Shown here: positions 621 through 61,654 of the stretch, one piece after another
Position numbering within the stretch: position 1 is the stretch's first letter
Layout: every line of letters begins with the position of its first letter
Source: a virus
Length of the DNA: 64,000 bases
Strand: one strand, 5' to 3'
Virus record (IMG/VR): IMGVR_UViG_3300030685_000017
Span: 60,608 to 124,607 of that record
Translations under genes and position numbers: made by a program
Notes under the pieces: generated by a model
Seen by the model: the letters and a program-made list of their open reading frames with translations, nothing else
Told to the model about the DNA's origin: nothing
Databases searched by the model: none

Positions 621-654
621 ATAATGTATCACAAACATTGTTAAAATTGGAGTA

Positions 655-717
655 CTTAGTTGGTCTAAATGGAAGGACGCTTATGCGTAGAAACGTGAGT
701 TCGATTCTCACACTGAG
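655..717 (+). ncRNA. tRNA-like element without a normal anticodon arm
   Basis: A perfect T arm (GTGAG, loop TTCGATT, CTCAC at 695-711) is followed by ACTGAG (712-717), which pairs with CTTAGT (655-660), giving a 6-bp acceptor stem with one G-U. The 34 bases between contain a D-loop-like TGGTC...TGGAAGG stretch and only a 4-bp hairpin (ACGC/GCGT) with a 4-base loop, so there is no 7-base anticodon loop. No CCA is encoded. It ends a few bases before the ribosome binding site of the next gene. It may be a processing signal or a decayed tRNA. Confidence 0.4.
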
Positions 718-735
718 ATTATTGGAGGTATATAA

Positions 736-13405: not shown

Positions 13406-13714
13406 ATGAATTATTCATTTAAAATTGGTGATAGAGTAAAGATAAAATCATGGGGAAAAATGGCACATGAATATGGAATAAATTGACTTGGTAATATTAA
13501 AACTCCTTGTCATTTTATTTCAGAAATGAAAGAATATTGTGGTAAACGCGCAGAAGTAATTAATATAATTAATAGAAAAGCATATCAAAGAGTACAGTTA
13601 TCTATAGCAATTGGTTATACAATAGATAATTGGATGTTAGAACCAGATAAGAATAGTATAAATTTTATGACGTATAAGGAAAGGAATAGAGATTGGATTA
13701 ATATAAATATATAA
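13406..13714 (+). pseudogene. SH3-like family member with in-frame TGA
   Basis: ATG 13406 opens F-K-I-G-D-R-V-K-I-K-S-W-G-K-M-A-H-E-Y-G, exactly as the intact family, but codon 27 is TGA (13484-13486), where the relatives at 8811 and 14041 have Cys. The frame then continues unbroken with the family blocks TPCHF, YCGK, DNWMLEP and tail FMTYKERNRDW to TAA 13714. A single base change or recoding separates it from an intact gene. Confidence 0.7.
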
Positions 13715-13729
13715 AAGGGAGATAAAGAT

Positions 13730-14044
13730 ATGAAACAATTTAATTTAGATGATATTCCTAAATATAAGAAAAAAGAAATAAAATCTGTAGAAAAACCTAA
13801 ACACAAACACATATATGAATATTGTCTTACAATAGATGAAAATAATAGATATTATCCTATGGTATATTGTACTATATGCGGTAAGCTAAAATATAATATA
13901 ACGCTTTGTGAAATTTCTGAAAAAACAGATGATGGATGTTTCAGATTATTATCTCAAGAAGAAATATATAATAAATATAAGCATTTAAAACAATTTAGAA
14001 TAAAGGATATGTTTCAAAAGCGGTTAGAAGGGGATAAGTTATGA
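13730..14044 (+). CDS. small protein with Cys/His zinc site
   Basis: 104 residues, AAAAGGGAGAT site. A possible zinc site is formed by HKHIYEYC and YCTICGK. Charged N-terminus, helical C-terminus. It overlaps the next gene by 4 bases. Function unknown. Confidence 0.7.
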   Translation: MKQFNLDDIPKYKKKEIKSVEKPKHKHIYEYCLTIDENNRYYPMVYCTICGKLKYNITLCEISEKTDDGCFRLLSQEEIYNKYKHLKQFRIKDMFQKRLEGDKL

Positions 14045-14365: not shown

Positions 14366-14713
14366 ATGACTTATACTTTTAAAATAGGAGATAAAGTGAA
14401 GTTTAAAGGTTGGAAAACATTGAGTAGAGATTATGGAATACAATGTCGTGATATTGTAACTCCGTATACTTTTAACAGAAGTATGAATTGGTTATGTGGT
14501 TTACACGCCGAAGTTATAAAAGTAACAAAAGAAAGTGATATTTGTACTTGGTATGAACAATATAAAAAACGTAATATAACTGTACAGATACAAAATATAG
14601 AAGTAAAATTGTTAGATGATTATACACAAAAATTATATAGTATTGAAAATTTTTCATTTGATAATTTTATGTTTGAACCCATGGTCAAAGATCCGTGTTT
14701 TATGACACTATAA
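14366..14713 (+). CDS. SH3-like small protein with truncated tail
   Basis: 115 residues: F-K-I-G-D-K-V-K-F-K-G-W-K-T-L-S-R-D-Y-G, VTPYTF, WLCGLH, then an insertion of about 25 residues, and FDNFMFEP. It ends CFMTL followed by TAA. The three codons after the stop read E-R-K in the same frame, so the relatives' FMTFKER tail appears here as FMTL-stop-ER: the Lys codon AAA has become TAA. Confidence 0.8.
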   Translation: MTYTFKIGDKVKFKGWKTLSRDYGIQCRDIVTPYTFNRSMNWLCGLHAEVIKVTKESDICTWYEQYKKRNITVQIQNIEVKLLDDYTQKLYSIENFSFDNFMFEPMVKDPCFMTL

Positions 14714-26545: not shown

Positions 26546-26574
26546 TTGACTTTATTGTAAAAGTATGTTAAAAT
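26546..26574 (+). promoter_or_regulatory. sigma-A-type promoter, CTTACAA class
   Basis: TTGACT, 17 bases, TAAAAT, then AAA-CTTACAA. It starts the structured region before the DNA polymerase gene. Confidence 0.85.
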
Positions 26575-26603
26575 AAACTTACAAAAACAAAGAAGAAAAC
26601 ACG

Positions 26604-26646
26604 TAGCCACTAAGGTAAAGTATCGGTTCGAATCCGATAGTGGCTA
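26604..26646 (+). ncRNA. tRNA acceptor/T-arm minihelix
   Basis: TAGCCAC (26604-26610) pairs perfectly with GTGGCTA (26640-26646). Directly inside lies a 6-bp T stem TATCGG/CCGATA with a canonical TTCGAAT loop. Only ten bases (TAAGGTAAAG) stand where D, anticodon and variable arms should be. The two stems would stack into a 13-bp helix like the top half of a tRNA. No CCA. A second hairpin (26648-26669) follows at once. Confidence 0.65.
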
Positions 26647-26647
26647 T

Positions 26648-26669
26648 CGAAGATCTATAATGATCTTCG
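26648..26669 (+). other. 8-bp hairpin after the minihelix
   Basis: CGAAGATC, loop TATAAT, GATCTTCG. It abuts the tRNA-like minihelix. A few T residues follow but no full T run, so a terminator role is weak. Confidence 0.5.
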
Positions 26670-26973
26670 TTATTCTACCTCCTTCCTTATATAGTAGGAA
26701 TTATCGCAGACGATTTGTATATGTCGGTACAAGTTGGAGCAACACCATCAATTCCTATTCTTACGTAATAGTCAATGCAAGAATTGAATAATATCGCACT
26801 AAAAACCGTTTGTTTTGTAATTAACGATAATTTCTTCAAGCAAAATAAAAAGATAGGTTTTTATACCAAATTTATCGTTAATTACCATTTACTACAGACA
26901 TATTTCTGTTTATATATAATGTTATTATTACGTAAGAATAGAAGTTGTTTTTATATAATCATAAGGAGGAAAA
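26670..26973 (+). ncRNA. structured, apparently non-coding leader region
   Basis: No convincing gene: a 75-codon frame at 26775 has no ribosome binding site and an implausible composition. Long-range pairing is visible: TAGGAATT (26695) with AATTCCTA (26750), enclosing GTTGGAGCAAC and TTGTA/TACAA hairpins, and a perfect 14-bp inverted repeat GTAATTAACGATAA (26817-26830) with TTATCGTTAATTAC (26872-26885). Located downstream of a strong promoter. Confidence 0.45.
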
Positions 26974-27150
26974 ATGGGAGTAATACATTTCTTGGTTCCT
27001 GATGACATTAAGTGCAATTATATAGATGCTTGTAGTAAGTATTCTTATTTTAAATGTATGCATTGTCGAAATAATAAAGTAGTTGTAGAACAATATATAG
27101 AAAAAAGGAAACGTAAAAAATATAATTATTTTTCAAACATAAAATTATAA
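26974..27150 (+). CDS. 58-residue Cys-containing protein
   Basis: ATG 26974 has an ideal AAGGAGGAAAA site. MGVIHFLVPDDIKCNYIDAC and onward, with a possible zinc site (CNYIDAC, CMHC) and a strongly basic C-terminal part (EKRKRKKYNYF). It is the only credible gene in the 0.9-kb gap before the polymerase gene. Function unknown. Confidence 0.6.
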   Translation: MGVIHFLVPDDIKCNYIDACSKYSYFKCMHCRNNKVVVEQYIEKRKRKKYNYFSNIKL

Positions 27151-27346
27151 TAGAATAAAAGGTTGATAGATCCACTAAACTATCGACGGTATAGCATATG
27201 CCATTAGACGAGGAAACTCATATGCTAGTTGTACTGGCAACTATAAAACTTTGTACATACTTTACGAAATAGTTGATTTCGCAAAAAAAGTGAAATGCTT
27301 TTCATTGGGTGGCAAGCACCTAAATAAACCAGTATCATAGTTAGGT
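27151..27346 (+). ncRNA. multi-hairpin non-coding region
   Basis: Four or more consecutive hairpins: GTTGATAG/CTATCGAC (27162/27180), TAGCATATG/CATATGCTA (27192/27219), AGTTG/CAACT (27227/27238), CGAAAT/ATTTCG, and CACCTAA/TTAGGTG around a 17-base loop ending just before the next tRNA-like element. No reading frame with a ribosome binding site. The density of stems suggests a functional RNA, but I recognise no riboswitch or known family. Confidence 0.45.
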
Positions 27347-27413
27347 GTCCAATTATTTCAACAGGCAAGATAATCACATGTGATTGGTTATAGGTTCGAA
27401 CCCTATATTGGAC
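27347..27413 (+). ncRNA. tRNA-like element with aberrant anticodon arm
   Basis: Acceptor GTCCAAT/ATTGGAC (7 bp, perfect), T arm ATAGG-TTCGAAC-CCTAT (perfect), a weak 3-bp D arm with a CAACAGGC loop, and an anticodon-position stem TAATC/GATTG enclosing only six bases (ACATGT). A normal tRNA needs a 7-base loop with U at its second position. Length 67, no CCA. Degenerate tRNA or tRNA mimic. Confidence 0.5.
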
Positions 27414-27429
27414 ATTAATTTTTTAAAGC

Positions 27430-27458
27430 GGGGGAGTATTTGAATAAAATACTCCCCC
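27430..27458 (+). terminator. 12-bp GC-rich hairpin, terminator-like
   Basis: GGGGGAGTATTT pairs with AAATACTCCCCC around GAATA. It is followed by ATATTATATAAAGG rather than a T run and by the ribosome binding site of the polymerase gene 14 bases later. It could separate the non-coding RNA from the polymerase message or protect its 5' end. Confidence 0.55.
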
Positions 27459-27481: not shown

Positions 27482-30400
27482 ATGGGATTTTCAGGAATGC
27501 ATAATCATTCAGTACATTCTAATTATAGATTACGTGATGCACTTGGGAAAGTGCCAGATATTATAGAACGTGCACATGAATTAAAATATAAAGGAATTGC
27601 CTTTACAGAACATGAATGTATCACATCATCACTAGAAGCTAATAAATTTTATTATGCCCATAAAGATTTACCAGAGTGGGAAGGATTTAAAGTTATTCTT
27701 GGTAATGAAATTTATTTATGTCCAAGTAGTGTTACATCTGAAAATAAAAAAGAAAACATTTATCCTCATTTTATATTATTAGCTAAGGATGAAATTGGTC
27801 ATAGACAAATAAGACAACTATCAACTATAGCGTGGTCACATTCTTTTATGGATATTATGATGCGTGTACCAACATATTATACTGATTTAGAAGAGATTAT
27901 ATTGCCAGAACAAGGGCATATAGTTGGATCTAGTGCTTGTCTTGGTTCTAGTATAGCAAGACGAATTTTACAATTACCAGAACATCCAGAATATTATGAA
28001 TCTTGCCTTGAATGGTGTACTTATATTAATAGTATTTTTGGTCAAGGAAATTTCTTCTTGGAAATGCAACCTAGTAATAATGAAGATCAAATCTATGTAA
28101 ATAAAATATTATTAAAAATATCACAAGAATTAAATATTCCATTTATTGTGACTACTGATACTCATTATATTAGAAAAGAAGATCAGAAAATACATAAAAT
28201 ATTTTTAAATTCTCAAGATGGAGATCGAGAAGTAGATAGCTTTTATGCAAGTACTTATATGATGTCAGAACAAGAAATTCATGAATATATGGATGAATCA
28301 TTATCTTACGATATTGTGCGACAAGCTATAGATAATACAGATTTAATTTATGATATGATAACAGAATATAATTTGGAAAAACCCTTACATATTCCATATC
28401 TACCTAAAGATTTAACTGAACCAAATCAATTCTCATTAGATAAATGGAAAAAACAGATACCTCTATTTGAATACTTTTTTTATTCTAAAACTAGTAGTGA
28501 TAGACATATGGCTAGGGAATTACTTAAACATTTAGATGATGATATAGATTATCAAAATGAGCAAGGTTTTAAATCTATTTCAGAATGCCTAGAAGCTATA
28601 AAATTATCATCGGAAAAGATGAATGTGCACTGGTCAGCGTATCTAATGCAATTACGTGATTATATTAAGATTGCATGGGATTGTGATACACTAGTTGGAG
28701 TTGGAAGAGGATCTGGTGTTGGTTTTTGTTTATTACATATGTTAGATATTACTCAAATTAATCCATTAAAGGAAAATACAAAAACTTTTTATTGGAGATT
28801 TATGAATCCTTATCGTACTTCTGTACTTGATATTGATACAGATATCCAATCAAATAGAAGAGATAAAGTAATTGAAGGACTAAAACAAGCTTACGGAGAA
28901 GATAGAGTCTCTAAGGTCATGACAATAAGTACAGAGGGTACTCGTAGTGCTATTCTTACTGCCGCTAGGGGTCTTGGTATAGACAATGATGAAGCTCAAT
29001 ATATTGCATCATTAGTAGTTGCAGATAGAGGTCAATCTAGGACTTTAAAACAAATGTATTATGGTGATGAAGAAAATGATTATAAGCCAGTATATGACTT
29101 CATTAAAGAAATGAACGATCATCCTGATCTATGGGATGCCGCTCAAAAAATTGAAGGTGTAATAAATGGAGTAGGAAGTCACGCAGGGGGAGTAGTTATT
29201 GTAGACGAACCATTTTATAATTCTACTGCTTTAATGAAAACAAGTAGTGGTGATGTTATTACTCAATTTGATTTACATTCATTAGAAGATGTTAGTCTTA
29301 TTAAAATTGATTTATTATGTATAGAAGCTCTTGATAAAATTAGAGCTGAATTAGATTTATTATTAAAAGATAAAGTAATACAATGGCAAGGTTCTTTAAA
29401 AGATACCTATGAAAATTATTTGGGAGTATATAAAATTGAACGTAATAATACAGATATGTGGAATTGCTTATTACAACATAAAGTTTTTTCATTTTTTCAA
29501 ATGGAAAAAGATTCTGGGTATAAAGCAATATCTATTGGTCAGCCACAAAGCGTAGATGATTTAGCCGCTATTAATACTGTTATGAGACTTATGCCACAAA
29601 GTAAAAATGATATTGCGCCTATTGATAAATTTGGTAAATATAAAGCTAATATAGATTTATGGTATGAAGAAATGCATAAAGCTGGATTAACATCAAAAGA
29701 GCAAAAATTACTTGAACCTATATTGGTTAGTTCTTATGGAGTATGTCAATCTCAAGAACAAATGATGCAAGTTGTACAAGTGCCCGAATGTGGTGGATTT
29801 GATTTAGTTTGGGCAGACAGTCTTAGAAAATCTGTAGCAAAGAAAAATCCAAAAGCTTTTAATAAACTTGAAGAAGAATATTTAACTACAGTAAAAGAAA
29901 AAGGACTATCTCAAAATTTATGTAAATATGTATGGTATACACTTATTTATGGTCTTAGAGGATATGGATTTCCTGCCAGTCATGGATTAGCATATAGTAT
30001 GATAGGATTACAAGAACTTAATTTATATTATCATTACAATCCAATCTATTGGACTTGTGCGAATTTAATCGTAGACTCTGGTTCTAGTGATGAAAATACA
30101 GAAAATAAATCTACTAATTATGGTAAAATAGCTATCGCCGTAAATACGATTAAAAAGACGGGAGTTACTATAGCTAATCCATTAATTAATAGTGCTAAAT
30201 TCGGCTATATACCCGATATTAAGAACAATCGTATTATTGTGGGGTTAAAGGCAATTAATGGCATAGGAGACGATATAGCGCAGTCTTTAATAGTCAATGC
30301 GCCTTATACTTCTTTTCAGGACTTTTGTATTCGTATGATTGATACAAAAATTGTGTCCAATTCTCAAATGATTGCTTTAATAAAAGCAGGATGTTTTCTT

Positions 30401-31405
30401 GAACTTGATAGTGTAGATCGTATGAAGACTATGTCATATTATATTAATACTTATTTATTTTCTAATACAACTAAATTAACTATGTCTCAATTTGCTAAAA
30501 TCCAAGAATTTAATTTAATACCTTTAAAATTACAAGAAATTGTTAAGATTAATAATTTTAAAGATTATGTATTAAACGAAGATGGATTTATAAAGACAAT
30601 AATAGAACCAAATAAAAAAATTATTCCTAAATGTGGTTATCATGATAGGTGTTTTTCATTAGATCATAATTCTCAAGCATTCTTTCAAAAACATTTTTCA
30701 GAAGAAAGTGTAATTGGAATTGAAAAAGGTTTTTATTTAATTTCTGAAAAGAAATTTTTAAAAGAACTTAATTTAAAATTACAACCCCTAAGAGATTGGT
30801 TTGAACAAGAAGAAACTTTAAATTTATATAATCAAGCCATGTTCGATAATATCTTTATGGAAAAAGTTAAAAGTAATAATGTAAATAAATGGTCTATGGA
30901 TGTGTTAACTTATTATGACAATGATCATGAATTAAAAGACATTAATAATCAAAAATATGATATTATTAATTTTACAGAACAACCAGAAATTCCAGAAATG
31001 TATGATAGTTATAGCAAATATATTAACGGAGTAAGACATATATTTCCTAAAAAAACAATTCATAGAATTGCTGGAACTGTTATTTCAAGTGATAATAATC
31101 ATGCACAAATTACTCTTTTAACAGTATACGGTGTAATAAATGTAAAACTTAATAAAGGTCAATATGCTTATTATGGAAAACGTATTTCGAAAACTGATAA
31201 ATCTACAGGAAAGAAACACGTTATGGATGAAAGTTGGTTTAAGCGTGGTACTTTATTATTGGTGTGTGGATATAGAGAAGAAGCTATTTTTAGAGCATAT
31301 CGTTATAATGACACAGTATTTACACATACAGTTAATAAAATTATAGAAATTAATAAAAATCATGAACTAATAATAATAAACGAGAGGGGTGATACCGGTG
31401 AGTAA
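27482..31405 (+). CDS. dnaE: DNA polymerase III alpha subunit, DnaE-type
   Basis: 1307 residues. N-terminal PHP domain (GMHNHSVHSNY, FTEHEC), then the family C polymerase core: GVGRGSGVGFCLLH near residue 405, the catalytic Asp cluster LDIDTDIQSNRRDK near 448, STEGTRSAILTAARGLG and SHAGGVVI. PHP His residues look intact, so proofreading or phosphatase activity is possible. C-terminal helix-hairpin-helix region (GLKAINGIGDDIAQSL) and OB-like domain (AGTVISSDNNHAQITLL). The phage therefore carries its own replicase. AAAGGAG site; the helicase gene overlaps its end. Confidence 0.93.
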   Translation: MGFSGMHNHSVHSNYRLRDALGKVPDIIERAHELKYKGIAFTEHECITSSLEANKFYYAHKDLPEWEGFKVILGNEIYLCPSSVTSENKKENIYPHFILLAKDEIGHRQIRQLSTIAWSHSFMDIMMRVPTYYTDLEEIILPEQGHIVGSSACLGSSIARRILQLPEHPEYYESCLEWCTYINSIFGQGNFFLEMQPSNNEDQIYVNKILLKISQELNIPFIVTTDTHYIRKEDQKIHKIFLNSQDGDREVDSFYASTYMMSEQEIHEYMDESLSYDIVRQAIDNTDLIYDMITEYNLEKPLHIPYLPKDLTEPNQFSLDKWKKQIPLFEYFFYSKTSSDRHMARELLKHLDDDIDYQNEQGFKSISECLEAIKLSSEKMNVHWSAYLMQLRDYIKIAWDCDTLVGVGRGSGVGFCLLHMLDITQINPLKENTKTFYWRFMNPYRTSVLDIDTDIQSNRRDKVIEGLKQAYGEDRVSKVMTISTEGTRSAILTAARGLGIDNDEAQYIASLVVADRGQSRTLKQMYYGDEENDYKPVYDFIKEMNDHPDLWDAAQKIEGVINGVGSHAGGVVIVDEPFYNSTALMKTSSGDVITQFDLHSLEDVSLIKIDLLCIEALDKIRAELDLLLKDKVIQWQGSLKDTYENYLGVYKIERNNTDMWNCLLQHKVFSFFQMEKDSGYKAISIGQPQSVDDLAAINTVMRLMPQSKNDIAPIDKFGKYKANIDLWYEEMHKAGLTSKEQKLLEPILVSSYGVCQSQEQMMQVVQVPECGGFDLVWADSLRKSVAKKNPKAFNKLEEEYLTTVKEKGLSQNLCKYVWYTLIYGLRGYGFPASHGLAYSMIGLQELNLYYHYNPIYWTCANLIVDSGSSDENTENKSTNYGKIAIAVNTIKKTGVTIANPLINSAKFGYIPDIKNNRIIVGLKAINGIGDDIAQSLIVNAPYTSFQDFCIRMIDTKIVSNSQMIALIKAGCFLELDSVDRMKTMSYYINTYLFSNTTKLTMSQFAKIQEFNLIPLKLQEIVKINNFKDYVLNEDGFIKTIIEPNKKIIPKCGYHDRCFSLDHNSQAFFQKHFSEESVIGIEKGFYLISEKKFLKELNLKLQPLRDWFEQEETLNLYNQAMFDNIFMEKVKSNNVNKWSMDVLTYYDNDHELKDINNQKYDIINFTEQPEIPEMYDSYSKYINGVRHIFPKKTIHRIAGTVISSDNNHAQITLLTVYGVINVKLNKGQYAYYGKRISKTDKSTGKKHVMDESWFKRGTLLLVCGYREEAIFRAYRYNDTVFTHTVNKIIEINKNHELIIINERGDTGE

Positions 31406-44514: not shown

Positions 44515-45174
44515 TCAGCCATTAGCAATATATCTTATACCATATTGTGCAGCATATACAGTGGTATCAGCAGTGTAATGCGCATAAAGAGAAAGAGTAC
44601 CTTTTGCAAGAGAAATACCAATTACAGTGCCAGTCCAAGTATTAATCGTGTTACCCATTCCACAATTTAATATGTTGTCTACACGAGGAAGATATTTGCT
44701 ATTATCAAAGGTTAAAACCAAGCCATTGTTTGCTAATCCTGCGGGATAATATCCATCAATGTATATTTCTTTCGTTGCTGAATTATATAATGCACTTGTT
44801 ATTGTGATATGCGTAGCTGTAATATGTGACGTTATATCTACCCAAGTCAAATTACCATTTATTTGAGTGATTTCATTCCCAATATTGTCTTGTATTACAT
44901 TATATCCAGACGTCGGAGAAATAATAATTGTTCCTCCATTAGTAATTGCTGTTGTAATTTTATATAAAATACCTCCATAAACTAAAAATTCTCCTATAGC
45001 ATATGCTTTAGATGCTATTAATGTAGTTTCTATTGTGGCAAAATTATGCATTGTATTAGTTATTCCATCAGAAGCATATATATCATCAGTTATTGCAAAA
45101 TAAGAAACAGGAGAAAAACCAGTATCTTTTTTTATTAATTTTTTTTGATGCGTAATTGTGGATAAAGTACTCAT
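44515..45174 (-). CDS. tail-fibre / receptor-binding tip protein
   Basis: 219 residues. Constant first half (SKAYAIGEFLVYGGILYKIT, TAITNGGTIIISPTSGYNVI) shared with the gene at 46205, then a variable C-terminal half from INGNLTWVDI (LPRVDNILNCGMGNTINTW, SLYAHYTADTTVYAAQYGIR). This half is the probable host-contact domain. AAGGAGAAAATA site. A 92-bp stretch is identical to the gene at 46205. Confidence 0.7.
   Translation of the reverse strand: MSTLSTITHQKKLIKKDTGFSPVSYFAITDDIYASDGITNTMHNFATIETTLIASKAYAIGEFLVYGGILYKITTAITNGGTIIISPTSGYNVIQDNIGNEITQINGNLTWVDITSHITATHITITSALYNSATKEIYIDGYYPAGLANNGLVLTFDNSKYLPRVDNILNCGMGNTINTWTGTVIGISLAKGTLSLYAHYTADTTVYAAQYGIRYIANG
44852..44861 (-). repeat. 10-bp inverted repeat, expressed side
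   Basis: Minus-strand TAAATGGTAA in the fibre gene, partner of 44187-44196. Recombination between them would invert about 675 bp and join the constant half to the silent tip in frame. Confidence 0.4.
44866..44957. repeat. 92-bp direct repeat, copy 1
   Basis: Identical base for base to 46286-46377, in the same orientation, inside two different fibre genes. Encodes the segment from TTAITNGGTIII to IGNEIT. Confidence 0.95.
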
Positions 45175-47264: not shown

Positions 47265-48875
47265 TTAAGTATTATCATATAATTGTAAAAATTTATACAT
47301 GGTAATTGTAGAAGTACATTTAGAAAAATCATTACTTACTTCTGTTACTATATAAGTTTCTTCTGTATCATTCTGTCTTTTTTTATAACTAACTTTTATA
47401 TTAACATCTAAGAAAGGAACTAATAAAGTGGTTATAGATACTGTATCCATCATTGTAGTAGATTTACGATTATAATAAGCGGCATTAGTTTTTGCTACCG
47501 TATTAGATAAAATATTATCAAAATTATCTCCTGAATGACTCTCTAGTACTTCTCCTAAATTTTGTACACTAAATTTACTAGTAGGATCAATTCTAAATAT
47601 AACATTTTTAGGATCTATATTATATTTATTAGAAAAATAAGTTTTAGTATACGTAATATCATTTACATCATTTGTAAATACGCATAAAGCATGTGGTTGA
47701 TATTGCCCTAAATAATAAGCCACTTTTGTACCTGTACTATCATTCAAAGTATAAATTTTCACAGCACATGTTTCACCATTTTCTATTTCATTAGCTGTCA
47801 ATGCTGTTGTTGTATATTCATAATAAATAGGTAATACTCCTAAACTATTTATTTGAATATTACACGCTCCTGTATTATTTGCAGAAGGTACAAAAGCAAT
47901 TATATCCGATTTATCATAACTCGTATAAGCAGATAAAGTTAATTGATAAATATTAGAAGCAAAACTACTAAACGTGGCATAAAAATCTACATCATAACTT
48001 ACGCCAAATATTTCAGTAATATTTTTTATATTACTTGTATCATACTCGACACTTTCACAATCGTCACTAGTTTGTATAGAACGTAGAAAACTATTATCTA
48101 TATCTATAATTTCTGTGGTCATTGTTGGTAACATATTAAAACAAAATGCCCCATAAACATCCATATAGGCTTGACAATCAGGATATAAATCTCTTATATC
48201 TCCTAACGCCGTCCATAATGTATCACCCGGATTATATGTAAGATCGGAAGGTAGGATATTCCATTCACTATTATTTTGTCTGTAAGTTAAATAATCTGAA
48301 TTATGCCCCGGCATACCATAATATTCACCCACATCTTCAATAATGTAATCTTTAATAGTAGTTAAATTTTGTATAATATAACTTACAATTTCTCGTATTG
48401 TTCGTTTTGCTCCATTATATTCTACCGGAATAGTTAAACTTATTGCTCCCCCTATTTGACCATTAACAGTCCCATTTAATTCTGAAATGCGATCAGACAA
48501 AGAAAATTTAAGAGAATTCTCAGTAGCGTTGTATGTCGTACTAACTCCTGTAATTCTATAAATTCCAGCTGGATACCAGCTATAAGTTTCTTTTATATAA
48601 TCTTCTACACCTAAATCAATTTTATAAAAGAAACCAAGCCAAGTATTAATTTCATTTTCTATATCAGAAATAAAATCATCTAACTTTAAAGTAAAATCAC
48701 ATGTTCTTCTAATATCAGAACTAGATTGTATATCTAAAGTTCCAAAATCTGAAACTCCTGTGAATGATGTTATGATTGTTTTCATATCTGATTTAACAAT
48801 TGAAATTCGCATTTTATAATTTACTATAGGTTGCTGTAACAGTTCCTTGTCGTCTTCTAAAATTACATATTTCAT
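47265..48875 (-). CDS. baseplate / tail tip structural protein
   Basis: 536 residues. Beta-rich, beginning KYVILEDDKELLQQPIVNYK; contains FYKIDLGVEDYIKE and TLDIQSSSDIRRTCDFTLKL, like domains of siphovirus tail-tip hub proteins that set up D1/D4-type barrels. It lies between the distal tail-like protein and fibre genes. The ribosome binding site is GGGAG with a long spacer. Confidence 0.65.
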   Translation of the reverse strand: MKYVILEDDKELLQQPIVNYKMRISIVKSDMKTIITSFTGVSDFGTLDIQSSSDIRRTCDFTLKLDDFISDIENEINTWLGFFYKIDLGVEDYIKETYSWYPAGIYRITGVSTTYNATENSLKFSLSDRISELNGTVNGQIGGAISLTIPVEYNGAKRTIREIVSYIIQNLTTIKDYIIEDVGEYYGMPGHNSDYLTYRQNNSEWNILPSDLTYNPGDTLWTALGDIRDLYPDCQAYMDVYGAFCFNMLPTMTTEIIDIDNSFLRSIQTSDDCESVEYDTSNIKNITEIFGVSYDVDFYATFSSFASNIYQLTLSAYTSYDKSDIIAFVPSANNTGACNIQINSLGVLPIYYEYTTTALTANEIENGETCAVKIYTLNDSTGTKVAYYLGQYQPHALCVFTNDVNDITYTKTYFSNKYNIDPKNVIFRIDPTSKFSVQNLGEVLESHSGDNFDNILSNTVAKTNAAYYNRKSTTMMDTVSITTLLVPFLDVNIKVSYKKRQNDTEETYIVTEVSNDFSKCTSTITMYKFLQLYDNT

Positions 48876-48879
48876 ATTT

Positions 48880-49773
48880 TTAGTATACTCCCGGTTCTAC
48901 CAAAGATAAATTATTTTTATATAAATCTTTTTCACTTACGCAAGATCCTATTTCTACAAAATCAAACGAAATAGTCCATAAGTCTGGATGTCCTTCTTCT
49001 GTTTCAGAAGGAGTTCCAGTAATTCTAATAAGCCAATTTCTTCCAATATCTAATTTTAAAATTTTTGGCTTTTTATTACATAACCAATCTATAATTGTTT
49101 TTCTAAATATACCTTGTGTACCAGAATCTACCATACAATTAGTAAATTTTAGAAAAGCCGCAGTTATAGTACCAGTATCATAATTAGCATCTGAATTTGA
49201 AACTACTACTGGATATTGACTATCATTAATTTTTAAAGTCGTGTTGTCTTGCTGTCTTGTAATCTGTGGATAAGTAATATCAACTACAGTATGAACAAAA
49301 GTATCTTTATCTGTAATACATATTCCTTCAAAATCAGAATATATAGTAATATTTTCATATGAATTTATATTACCAGATAATACAGACATACACATAAATT
49401 CTTCATTTGTTCTAGCTTTTGCATAATAATATTCTTTTACGAAATTAAAATCAGTAATATCTTTAATAGGAATTACAAAAATAGTAATCCATTCAAGAGT
49501 ACCTGTTTCTCTAGTCTTTATTACAATAGTATCTGTATTCTTTAATGAAAATCCAGAATTACCGCCATCTAAATTATTTTCATATGTAGCATTTAATTTA
49601 GTTGTATAAGTCCAATCATCATTAATGTTATCTACAGTTTTTGTATAATCTGTACTTAAATATAATTGATCATATGTACCATCATTTAATATTGCATTTG
49701 TAAAAGTACCCGTATCAGTTGCGGGAGTCTGCATAGCATATATACCACTAAAAAAATCTATTCCAAAAAACAT
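48880..49773 (-). CDS. distal tail protein-like
   Basis: 297 residues, AAAGGGAGAAG site. Beta-rich with WITIFVIPIKDITDFNFVKE and IDWLCNKKPKILKLDIGRNW, a layout like the distal tail proteins that cap the tube. Position two genes from the tape measure supports this. No enzymatic motif. Confidence 0.55.
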   Translation of the reverse strand: MFFGIDFFSGIYAMQTPATDTGTFTNAILNDGTYDQLYLSTDYTKTVDNINDDWTYTTKLNATYENNLDGGNSGFSLKNTDTIVIKTRETGTLEWITIFVIPIKDITDFNFVKEYYYAKARTNEEFMCMSVLSGNINSYENITIYSDFEGICITDKDTFVHTVVDITYPQITRQQDNTTLKINDSQYPVVVSNSDANYDTGTITAAFLKFTNCMVDSGTQGIFRKTIIDWLCNKKPKILKLDIGRNWLIRITGTPSETEEGHPDLWTISFDFVEIGSCVSEKDLYKNNLSLVEPGVY

Positions 49774-61084: not shown

Positions 61085-61654
61085 TTAACGATACATCTGT
61101 ATATAATTTTTCATAATAGATTTATGACATGCTTCATTAAAACCATCATCATAAAACTGTTTTATTTGCGTCATTGTATATCTATTTAATTCGTACATTT
61201 GTCCATATAATGTTATTGTACGATTATTTCCCCATCTAACCCAACTAGCATTCTGTGTATGTCTTCTAAAAGCCCCATTATTAATAGAATGTCCTTCATA
61301 ACGTACTCCATATTCGGCTACATTCTTCCATACCCAACTAGTATCTATTCCATCTTTATAACCCGATAATTTTTCTGGTTCAAATTTTACATCAAATTGC
61401 TTTGCGCTCGAAGAACTTTTAATAGCGTTATATAAATTTGTACCACTCATACTTCCCCAAGTTTCTCCATGACGAATATAATAAGAAGGAGAATAAGAAT
61501 TATAATAATATTTAATACAAGTATCAAATACTTTTTCATTTTGTTTCATTTCTTTAGATACAAGTGGAATAGTTCTATCTAATGTATTACACATTTTAGT
61601 ATATCTAGCATATAATTCATTGTGTAATTGTTCATATTCTGAAACTGTACTCAT
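61085..61654 (-). CDS. tail-module structural or assembly protein
   Basis: 189 residues. Helical N-terminus (EYEQLHNELYARYTKMC), then an aromatic-rich beta region (YSPSYYIRHGETWGSM). Located immediately upstream of the tape measure gene in transcription order, where tail assembly chaperones or tube proteins are common. No motif recognised. GAAAGGAGAAAG site. Confidence 0.55.
   Translation of the reverse strand: MSTVSEYEQLHNELYARYTKMCNTLDRTIPLVSKEMKQNEKVFDTCIKYYYNSYSPSYYIRHGETWGSMSGTNLYNAIKSSSSAKQFDVKFEPEKLSGYKDGIDTSWVWKNVAEYGVRYEGHSINNGAFRRHTQNASWVRWGNNRTITLYGQMYELNRYTMTQIKQFYDDGFNEACHKSIMKNYIQMYR

What the first reader, a model, noticed from the sequence alone, without database searches (positions are those of the whole stretch)
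26604..26646. A tRNA top half with no anticodon arm at all, right after a strong promoter
Seven plus six uninterrupted base pairs with a TTCGAAT loop form a full acceptor-T minihelix, with ten bases in place of the rest. It begins about 30 bases after the -10 box. Such a mimic could be matured by RNase P, bind EF-Tu or CCA-adding enzyme, serve as a decoy for anticodon nucleases or tRNA modifiers, or protect the 5' end of the polymerase message.
Basis: partly seen in the sequence, partly recalled or inferred. Interest (0 to 1): 0.68.

Follow-up and report, generated by a model that had tools for sequence, protein, structure and literature searches.

The report
Anticodon-less mini-tRNA in phage genomes
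This phage really does carry a 42-base miniature of the top half of a tRNA, with its own promoter and a hairpin after it; look-alikes turn up in other phages, alone in front of genes or nested inside tRNA anticodon loops, so it looks like a selected small RNA rather than a chance fold, although what it does is untested.

Summary
Window 26605-26646 is a 7-bp acceptor stem, a 10-nt linker, a 5-bp T-arm with loop UUCGAAU, and discriminator A; U26604:A26646 adds a 13th pair. Chance gives about 0.006 such perfect elements per 124.6-kb genome. It is the short member of a set. In the same 900-nt block 27347-27414 is a tRNA-like RNA whose anticodon arm has a 4-nt loop, and the genome holds three or four more anticodon-deficient elements. 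The block is absent upstream of the polymerase in relatives.

A pattern search found the same architecture in unrelated phages. Some copies stand alone, mostly 20-30 nt before a start codon; others sit inside tRNA anticodon loops. In six of the seven nested sites analysed, removing exactly the element (plus CCA or its place where present) restores an ordinary tRNA. A covariance model built without the window copy finds it as its only match in 64 kb (E 0.023, modest). The linker keeps the D-loop GG.

Best reading: a mini-tRNA small-RNA gene, matured by host tRNA enzymes. The final role (decoy, or processing/5'-end element) is inference. Pseudogene decay fits poorly but is not excluded for this copy.

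The parts
26546..26574 (+). sigma-70/A type promoter, TTGACT-17-TAAAAT with TG before the -10
   Evidence: 10 of 12 consensus positions; such matches are common in this AT-rich region, so position rather than score is the argument
26581..26604 (+). inferred unstructured leader (transcription start near 26581); U26604 can pair with A26646
   Evidence: inferred from promoter spacing; fold
26605..26646 (+). anticodon-less mini-tRNA (TLE1): acceptor 7 bp, linker AAGGTAAAGT, T-arm 5 bp, loop UUCGAAU, discriminator A
26648..26676 (+). hairpin CGAAGATC-TATAAT-GATCTTCG with T-rich tail TTATTCT, starting 2 nt after the mini-tRNA: weak terminator or 5'-end hairpin of the downstream RNA
   Evidence: terminator-like sites 4 found, 0.4 expected; p 0.01 against random positions
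26974..27150 (+). 58-aa ORF with AAGGAGG ribosome site, first good ORF downstream; no Pfam match
27347..27414 (+). second tRNA-like element (TLE2): acceptor GUCCAAU/AUUGGAC, D-arm, 5-bp anticodon stem with 4-nt loop CAUG, T-arm AUAGG-UUCGAAC-CCUAU, discriminator A; no anticodon
   Evidence: (tRNA 37.9 bits)
27430..27458 (+). 12-bp hairpin with T-rich tail between TLE2 and the polymerase start site
27482..31405 (+). DNA polymerase III alpha-type polymerase (neighbour, SPbeta YorL-like)
654..719 (+). further tRNA-like element with stub anticodon arm (ACGC-TTAT-GCGT), 15 nt before an ATG; one acceptor mismatch

Best explanation
Window 26546-26676 is a small-RNA gene for a mini-tRNA: a tRNA reduced to its acceptor stem, a D-loop remnant (GGUA in the linker) and its T-arm. 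Transcribed from its own promoter, the RNA would fold into the 12-bp acceptor/T stack with a tRNA-like elbow. That is the surface read by RNase P (cut at 26604/26605, or one base earlier because U-1 pairs with A73), by 3' tRNA processing after A26646, and by CCA-adding enzyme, giving a stable RNA of about 45 nt without anticodon. Its most likely use is to occupy or divert an enzyme that handles tRNAs by their top half (host maturation, charging or CCA-end-directed defence), while the cut leaves the downstream RNA starting with a hairpin. Shown: sequence, structure, rarity by chance, recurrence of the class with covarying stems, precise nested insertions in phage tRNAs. Inferred: transcription, processing, CCA addition, and the decoy role (least certain, about 0.25).
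For: Perfect 12 (13) bp top half with canonical T-loop and discriminator, z -4.1; about 0.006 expected per genome. Promoter 30 nt upstream and terminator-like hairpin 2 nt downstream. Other anticodon-deficient elements in the same genome with intact or near-intact top halves; a BLAST for decayed tRNA pieces found none lacking the top half. Same architecture in unrelated phages, with different stem sequences and a constant 9-nt linker, partly as free-standing copies before ribosome sites, partly nested in anticodon loops where exact removal yields tRNA-Ile(UAU), Lys(UUU), Gln(UUG), Asn(GUU) or, with one extra base, Pro; a full-length tRNA nested in the same way yields Arg(UCU). Model R1, built without the window copy, has it as sole window match. 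RNase P measures the T-stem/acceptor stack from the elbow (PMC4919913); RNase P and CCA-adding enzyme recognise the top half (PMC4033280); RNase P also cuts non-tRNA phage RNAs such as M3 and C4 (PMC11143913). A phage- and satellite-borne T-arm RNA with terminator, SpF41, is expressed by Northern (PMC3395615).
Against: No expression data. TLE1 scores only 15.8 bits with R1 (E 0.023 in 64 kb) and its linker and T-loop differ from the GGGUAU/UUCAACU subfamily. No diverged homologue of TLE1 itself was found, so covariation is shown for the class, not for this copy. The six R1 rows were chosen from the pattern matches because their acceptors pair, which inflates the counts. The hairpin tail is a poor terminator. 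No target is identified.
Confidence: 0.5

Rival explanations
1. Transcript punctuation: the mini-tRNA is only a signal for tRNA-processing enzymes, placed in leaders so that cutting sets the 5' end of the following message, which then starts with a protective hairpin or a short leader; the excised piece has no function.
For: Elements in this genome lie 15-67 nt before a ribosome site in most cases; most free-standing copies elsewhere lie 20-30 nt before a start codon. TLE1, TLE2 and the element at G000 45046 are followed by unusually stable hairpins.
Against: Phage genomes are compact, so any element between genes sits near a start codon. TLE1 has its own promoter and its next good ORF starts 327 nt away. 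A hairpin beside the element is not general in other phages.
Confidence: 0.25
2. Remnant of a deleted tRNA gene without function, in a phage that gains and loses tRNAs.
For: The genome and its relatives carry many tRNAs; a simple internal deletion would leave a perfect top half.
Against: Several independent elements keep the top half and lose the anticodon arm in one genome; no fragments with the opposite pattern were found (although the scan itself favours intact top halves). The same form recurs with covarying stems and a constant linker in unrelated phages and at exact nested positions. D-loop GG is kept in all.
Confidence: 0.12
3. Leftover mini-tRNA intron: an element of the kind nested in anticodon loops that outlived the tRNA it sat in, or a mobile RNA that moved to this site.
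For: Nested minis share architecture and linker style (AAGGGTATG, AAAGGAATCA against AAGGTAAAGT); the nested copy in L294 scores 29.6 bits with R1.
Against: No tRNA sequence flanks TLE1; it lacks the CCA that most nested copies have; promoter and hairpin suggest a gene in its own right.
Confidence: 0.08
4. Ordinary leader hairpins (attenuator or terminator) that happen to look like a T-arm.
For: A terminator-like hairpin follows immediately.
Against: Chance expectation of a full top half is about 0.006 per genome; Rfam tRNA E 0.0024 in 1 kb.
Confidence: 0.05

Closest known systems
tRNA (Rfam RF00005)
   Same: 7-bp acceptor, 5-bp T-stem, T-loop UUCGAAU, GG of the D-loop, discriminator A
   Different: no D-stem, no anticodon arm, no variable loop; 27.5 bits, below the gathering score
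tRNA-like domain of tmRNA
   Same: by general knowledge: acceptor and T-arm with a D-loop but no anticodon arm
   Different: no mRNA-like part or pseudoknots found; linker of only 10 nt; no Rfam tmRNA match
SpF41 sRNA (RF02435), Streptococcus phages and satellites
   Same: phage-borne, T-arm, no canonical anticodon arm, hairpin/terminator right after, Northern-positive (PMC3395615)
   Different: three extra bases between T-arm and acceptor, extra helix with short loop; TLE1 scores 21.7 bits against a cutoff of 52
Phage T4 species 1 RNA (rnaC)
   Same: stable RNA in a phage tRNA cluster with a tRNA-like acceptor and T-arm
   Different: 139 nt, 60-nt middle; not a minihelix
RNase P-processed phage RNAs (M3, C4)
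   Same: non-tRNA phage RNAs cut by RNase P (PMC11143913)
   Different: not tested for sequence relation; processing of TLE1 unproven

Membership tests
tRNA | full cloverleaf with anticodon arm | tested here: not met
   10-nt linker in place of D-stem, anticodon arm and variable loop; ARAGORN negative
tRNA | score above Rfam gathering threshold | tested here: not met
   27.5 bits against 29
   only hit in the window at the exact coordinates, but 15.8 bits, E 0.023
   linker AAGGTAAAGT, loop UUCGAAU
SpF41 sRNA | gathering score 52 bits | tested here: not met
   21.7 bits; no match in the genome search
tmRNA | tag-peptide reading frame and tmRNA model match | tested here: not met
   ARAGORN and Rfam negative
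RNase P substrate | cleavage at the 5' end of the acceptor stem | not testable with these tools
   structure compatible; no biochemistry

The most novel reading that the evidence does not exclude
Phages carry a previously unnamed class of mini-tRNAs that can be released from any transcript, as free small RNAs or as cassettes sitting inside tRNA anticodon loops where they behave like introns removed by tRNA-processing enzymes and ligation; the window element is a free-standing member.
Probability: 0.3. Interest if true: 0.85.

Novelty: new variant of a known kind. Interest (0 to 1): 0.62.

Why it matters
tRNA-like RNAs that keep only what the maturation enzymes read are known from laboratory minihelices and from other tRNA mimics; I know of no natural 42-nt mini-tRNA genes in phages. 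If such RNAs are made during infection, they give natural minimal substrates for RNase P and CCA-adding enzyme, a candidate way for phages to act on tRNA-based host functions, and, in the nested form, an unusual kind of tRNA interruption that standard gene finders miss.

Tried and rejected
Same element upstream of polymerase genes in relatives: not found. Blastn of the block against annotated phages: no match. A small-protein family as bait for related phages: no relatives. A tRNA-Glu sequence as bait: one distant phage only. Pattern close to TLE1 itself in viral contigs: only near-identical contigs have the full element; the rest are mostly ordinary tRNAs. R1 in 398 + 58 bacterial genomes around a Lachnospiraceae genome: none, under strict filters, so no sign of a bacterial family. 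T4-type RNA ligase in phages with nested tRNAs: no hit, but the control genomes had none either, so inconclusive. Literature search for nested tRNAs: nothing found in this library. A 19-nt match in a fecal phage lacks the 3' half. An attachment site or a tmRNA was considered and dropped for lack of integrase context or tmRNA match. No protein structure was predicted because the question is about RNA.

Full report
WHAT WAS CLAIMED AND WHAT IS THERE. The sequence agrees. In tRNA numbering it is acceptor AGCCACU/AGUGGCU, linker AAGGUAAAGU, T-stem AUCGG/CCGAU, T-loop UUCGAAU and discriminator A; U26604 can pair with A26646. The fold is stable beyond composition (z -4.1). The Rfam tRNA model gives it 27.5 bits, with deletions over the D and anticodon regions, just under the family cutoff. 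Markov shuffles give 12 perfect cases with gap up to 20 nt in 1948 genomes of 124.6 kb. The copy is the same in four contigs from other samples.

SURROUNDINGS. The window is part of a 124,607-base virus record whose polymerase resembles SPbeta YorL at about 38% identity. A promoter-like site with TG before the -10 ends 30 nt upstream of the element, and a terminator-like hairpin starts 2 nt after it. A 58-aa ORF with a good ribosome site begins 327 nt downstream. At 27347-27414 lies a second tRNA-like element with D-arm and T-arm but a 4-nt loop where the anticodon loop should be; it scores 37.9 bits as tRNA although ARAGORN does not report it, and its simple minimum-energy fold is not significant (z -0.9). 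It is followed by a strong hairpin and the polymerase gene. In the 57%-identical relative L003 and in SPbeta the polymerase follows the upstream gene directly, without this block.

A SET IN ONE GENOME. Scans of the rest of the genome show more of the kind: 45046-45094 (17-nt middle), 47649-47700 (20-nt middle, one mismatch in the T-stem), 61261-61326 (window 654-719; stub arm, one acceptor mismatch), and 49081-49159, called tRNA-Stop by ARAGORN but with a poor anticodon arm. Ordinary tRNAs are present too, among them five for Glu with anticodon CUC. A BLAST of these elements against the genome found no tRNA pieces lacking the top half, though scanning for intact top halves is biased in that direction. 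All these middles contain GG, the bases that in tRNA join the T-loop to form the elbow (general knowledge).

THE SAME FORM ELSEWHERE. In 2.1 Mb around polymerase genes of relatives there was no further short element, but tRNA arrays of tRNA-rich relatives hold several anticodon-deficient elements. Two sit inside the anticodon loop of another tRNA. A pattern search for closely spaced T-arms (80 of at least 120 sites examined) and a search for GGGTATNNNNGGTTCAACTCC gave two groups. Nested: L168 (also L228, L324, L331), L240/L326, L294, L244 and L163, plus full-length tRNAs nested in L203 and L227. Free-standing: L315, L316, L317, L319, and with a 6-bp acceptor L322 and L332; five of these six lie 20-29 nt before a start codon with a ribosome site, L319 lies 180 nt before one.

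HOW STRONG IS THAT. For the GGGTAT search the acceptor stem was not part of the pattern. Among 20 matching contigs, the six sequences used for the model pair 7 of 7 at exactly a 9-nt linker; by my estimate a random site does so about once in a thousand. In the alignment of these six, 10 of 12 pairs change on both sides and slid registers pair at 33-43%; since the six were picked for pairing, the 100% figure is not independent evidence, but the recurrence at one spacing is. Model R1 built from them finds TLE1 as the only match in the window at the exact coordinates, E 0.023: supportive, not decisive. The nested L294 copy, with a 10-nt linker like TLE1, scores 29.6 bits.

NESTED COPIES SAY SOMETHING ABOUT ENDS. 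Removing the element from its first base to its discriminator plus CCA gives tRNA-Ile(UAU) in L168, tRNA-Lys(UUU) in L240 and L326 and tRNA-Gln(UUG) in L294; removal to the discriminator alone gives tRNA-Asn(GUU) in L244; with one extra 5' base (or one extra 3' base) L163 gives tRNA-Pro; the full-length tRNA in L227, which has CCC where CCA would be, gives tRNA-Arg(UCU). L203 does not resolve cleanly: it gives tRNA-Met(CAU) only when four bases after the discriminator, or one before and three after, are taken. Other cut points also leave something ARAGORN accepts, so the argument is that the ends expected from tRNA maturation give normal 7-nt loops in six of seven sites (L240 and L326 counted as one). 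Whether the RNAs are in fact excised and rejoined is unknown; a search for a T4-type ligase was inconclusive.

MECHANISM. RNase P binds the stacked acceptor and T-stem and measures from the elbow (PMC4919913); RNase P and CCA-adding enzyme recognise the top half (PMC4033280); phage RNAs other than tRNAs are known RNase P substrates (PMC11143913). TLE1 has the right stack length, elbow bases and discriminator. The most economical reading is therefore a small-RNA gene whose product is trimmed to a mini-tRNA. Its role is inferred: it cannot decode and offers no anticodon, so enzymes that read the top half are the candidates. The main rival is that cutting itself is the point, setting 5' ends of messages; the stable hairpins after TLE1, TLE2 and the element at 45046 fit that, but hairpins are not general in other phages.

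COMPARISON. SpF41 of Streptococcus is the nearest named RNA in arrangement. The Rfam model matched TLE1 with its hairpin weakly. SpF41-like sequences occur in 28 Streptococcus phage or satellite records; in the full-size phages inspected they lie directly before the terminase genes, and the RNA is detected by Northern in S. pneumoniae (PMC3395615). Its stem proportions differ, so TLE1 is not filed there. T4 species 1 RNA also ends in a tRNA-like acceptor and T-arm. R1 found nothing in 398 and 58 bacterial genomes, which suggests, without proving, that the form belongs to phages.

LIMITS.

Noticed in passing
L168(-) 14624-14664, L240, L326, L294:10731-10772, L244, L163:14651-14706, L227, L203: tRNAs or mini-tRNAs nested inside the anticodon loop of another tRNA in several phages; exact removal restores an ordinary tRNA in most. 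Standard tRNA finders miss or misname these.
   Followed up: partly
L173:9982-10096, 13504-13623, 13695-13815; L175:4540, 4732, 8508; L168:12711-12822: phage tRNAs with extra 40-60 nt in the anticodon region sharing a hairpin followed by a YNACAGCAAWU-like motif; possibly a small unknown intron.
   Followed up: no
window 27160-27345: structured RNA region of unknown kind between the 58-aa ORF and TLE2 (z -4.0).
   Followed up: no
window 26745-26943: nested inverted repeats (CTATTCTTACGTAATA / TATTACGTAAGAATAG and GTAATTAACGATAA with its complement) downstream of TLE1; origin, mobile element or RNA hairpin.
   Followed up: no
G000 44263, 44683, 45810, 52047, 53935: five tRNA-Glu(CUC) genes in one AT-rich phage; copies 44683 and 52047 are identical at both ends (1-22, 44-72) but differ in the anticodon arm.
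   Followed up: no
G000 49081-49159: element called tRNA-Stop (UUA) by ARAGORN, with a poor anticodon arm.
   Followed up: no
L184, L185, L186, L187, L190, L192, L194 and satellites L182, L183, L188, L189, L191, L193: SpF41 sRNA (RF02435) lies directly before terminase genes in Streptococcus phages and is also carried by satellites; a link with packaging or helper-satellite interplay is open.
   Followed up: partly
L181 (T4 record 70908-71046): T4 species 1 RNA (rnaC) contains a tRNA-like acceptor and T-arm.
   Followed up: partly
G000 41304-74953, several ORFs: two small paralogous protein families (FCKxM-type and KIKSWEE-type), many near tRNAs or tRNA-like elements; the representatives scanned have no Pfam match.
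   Followed up: no
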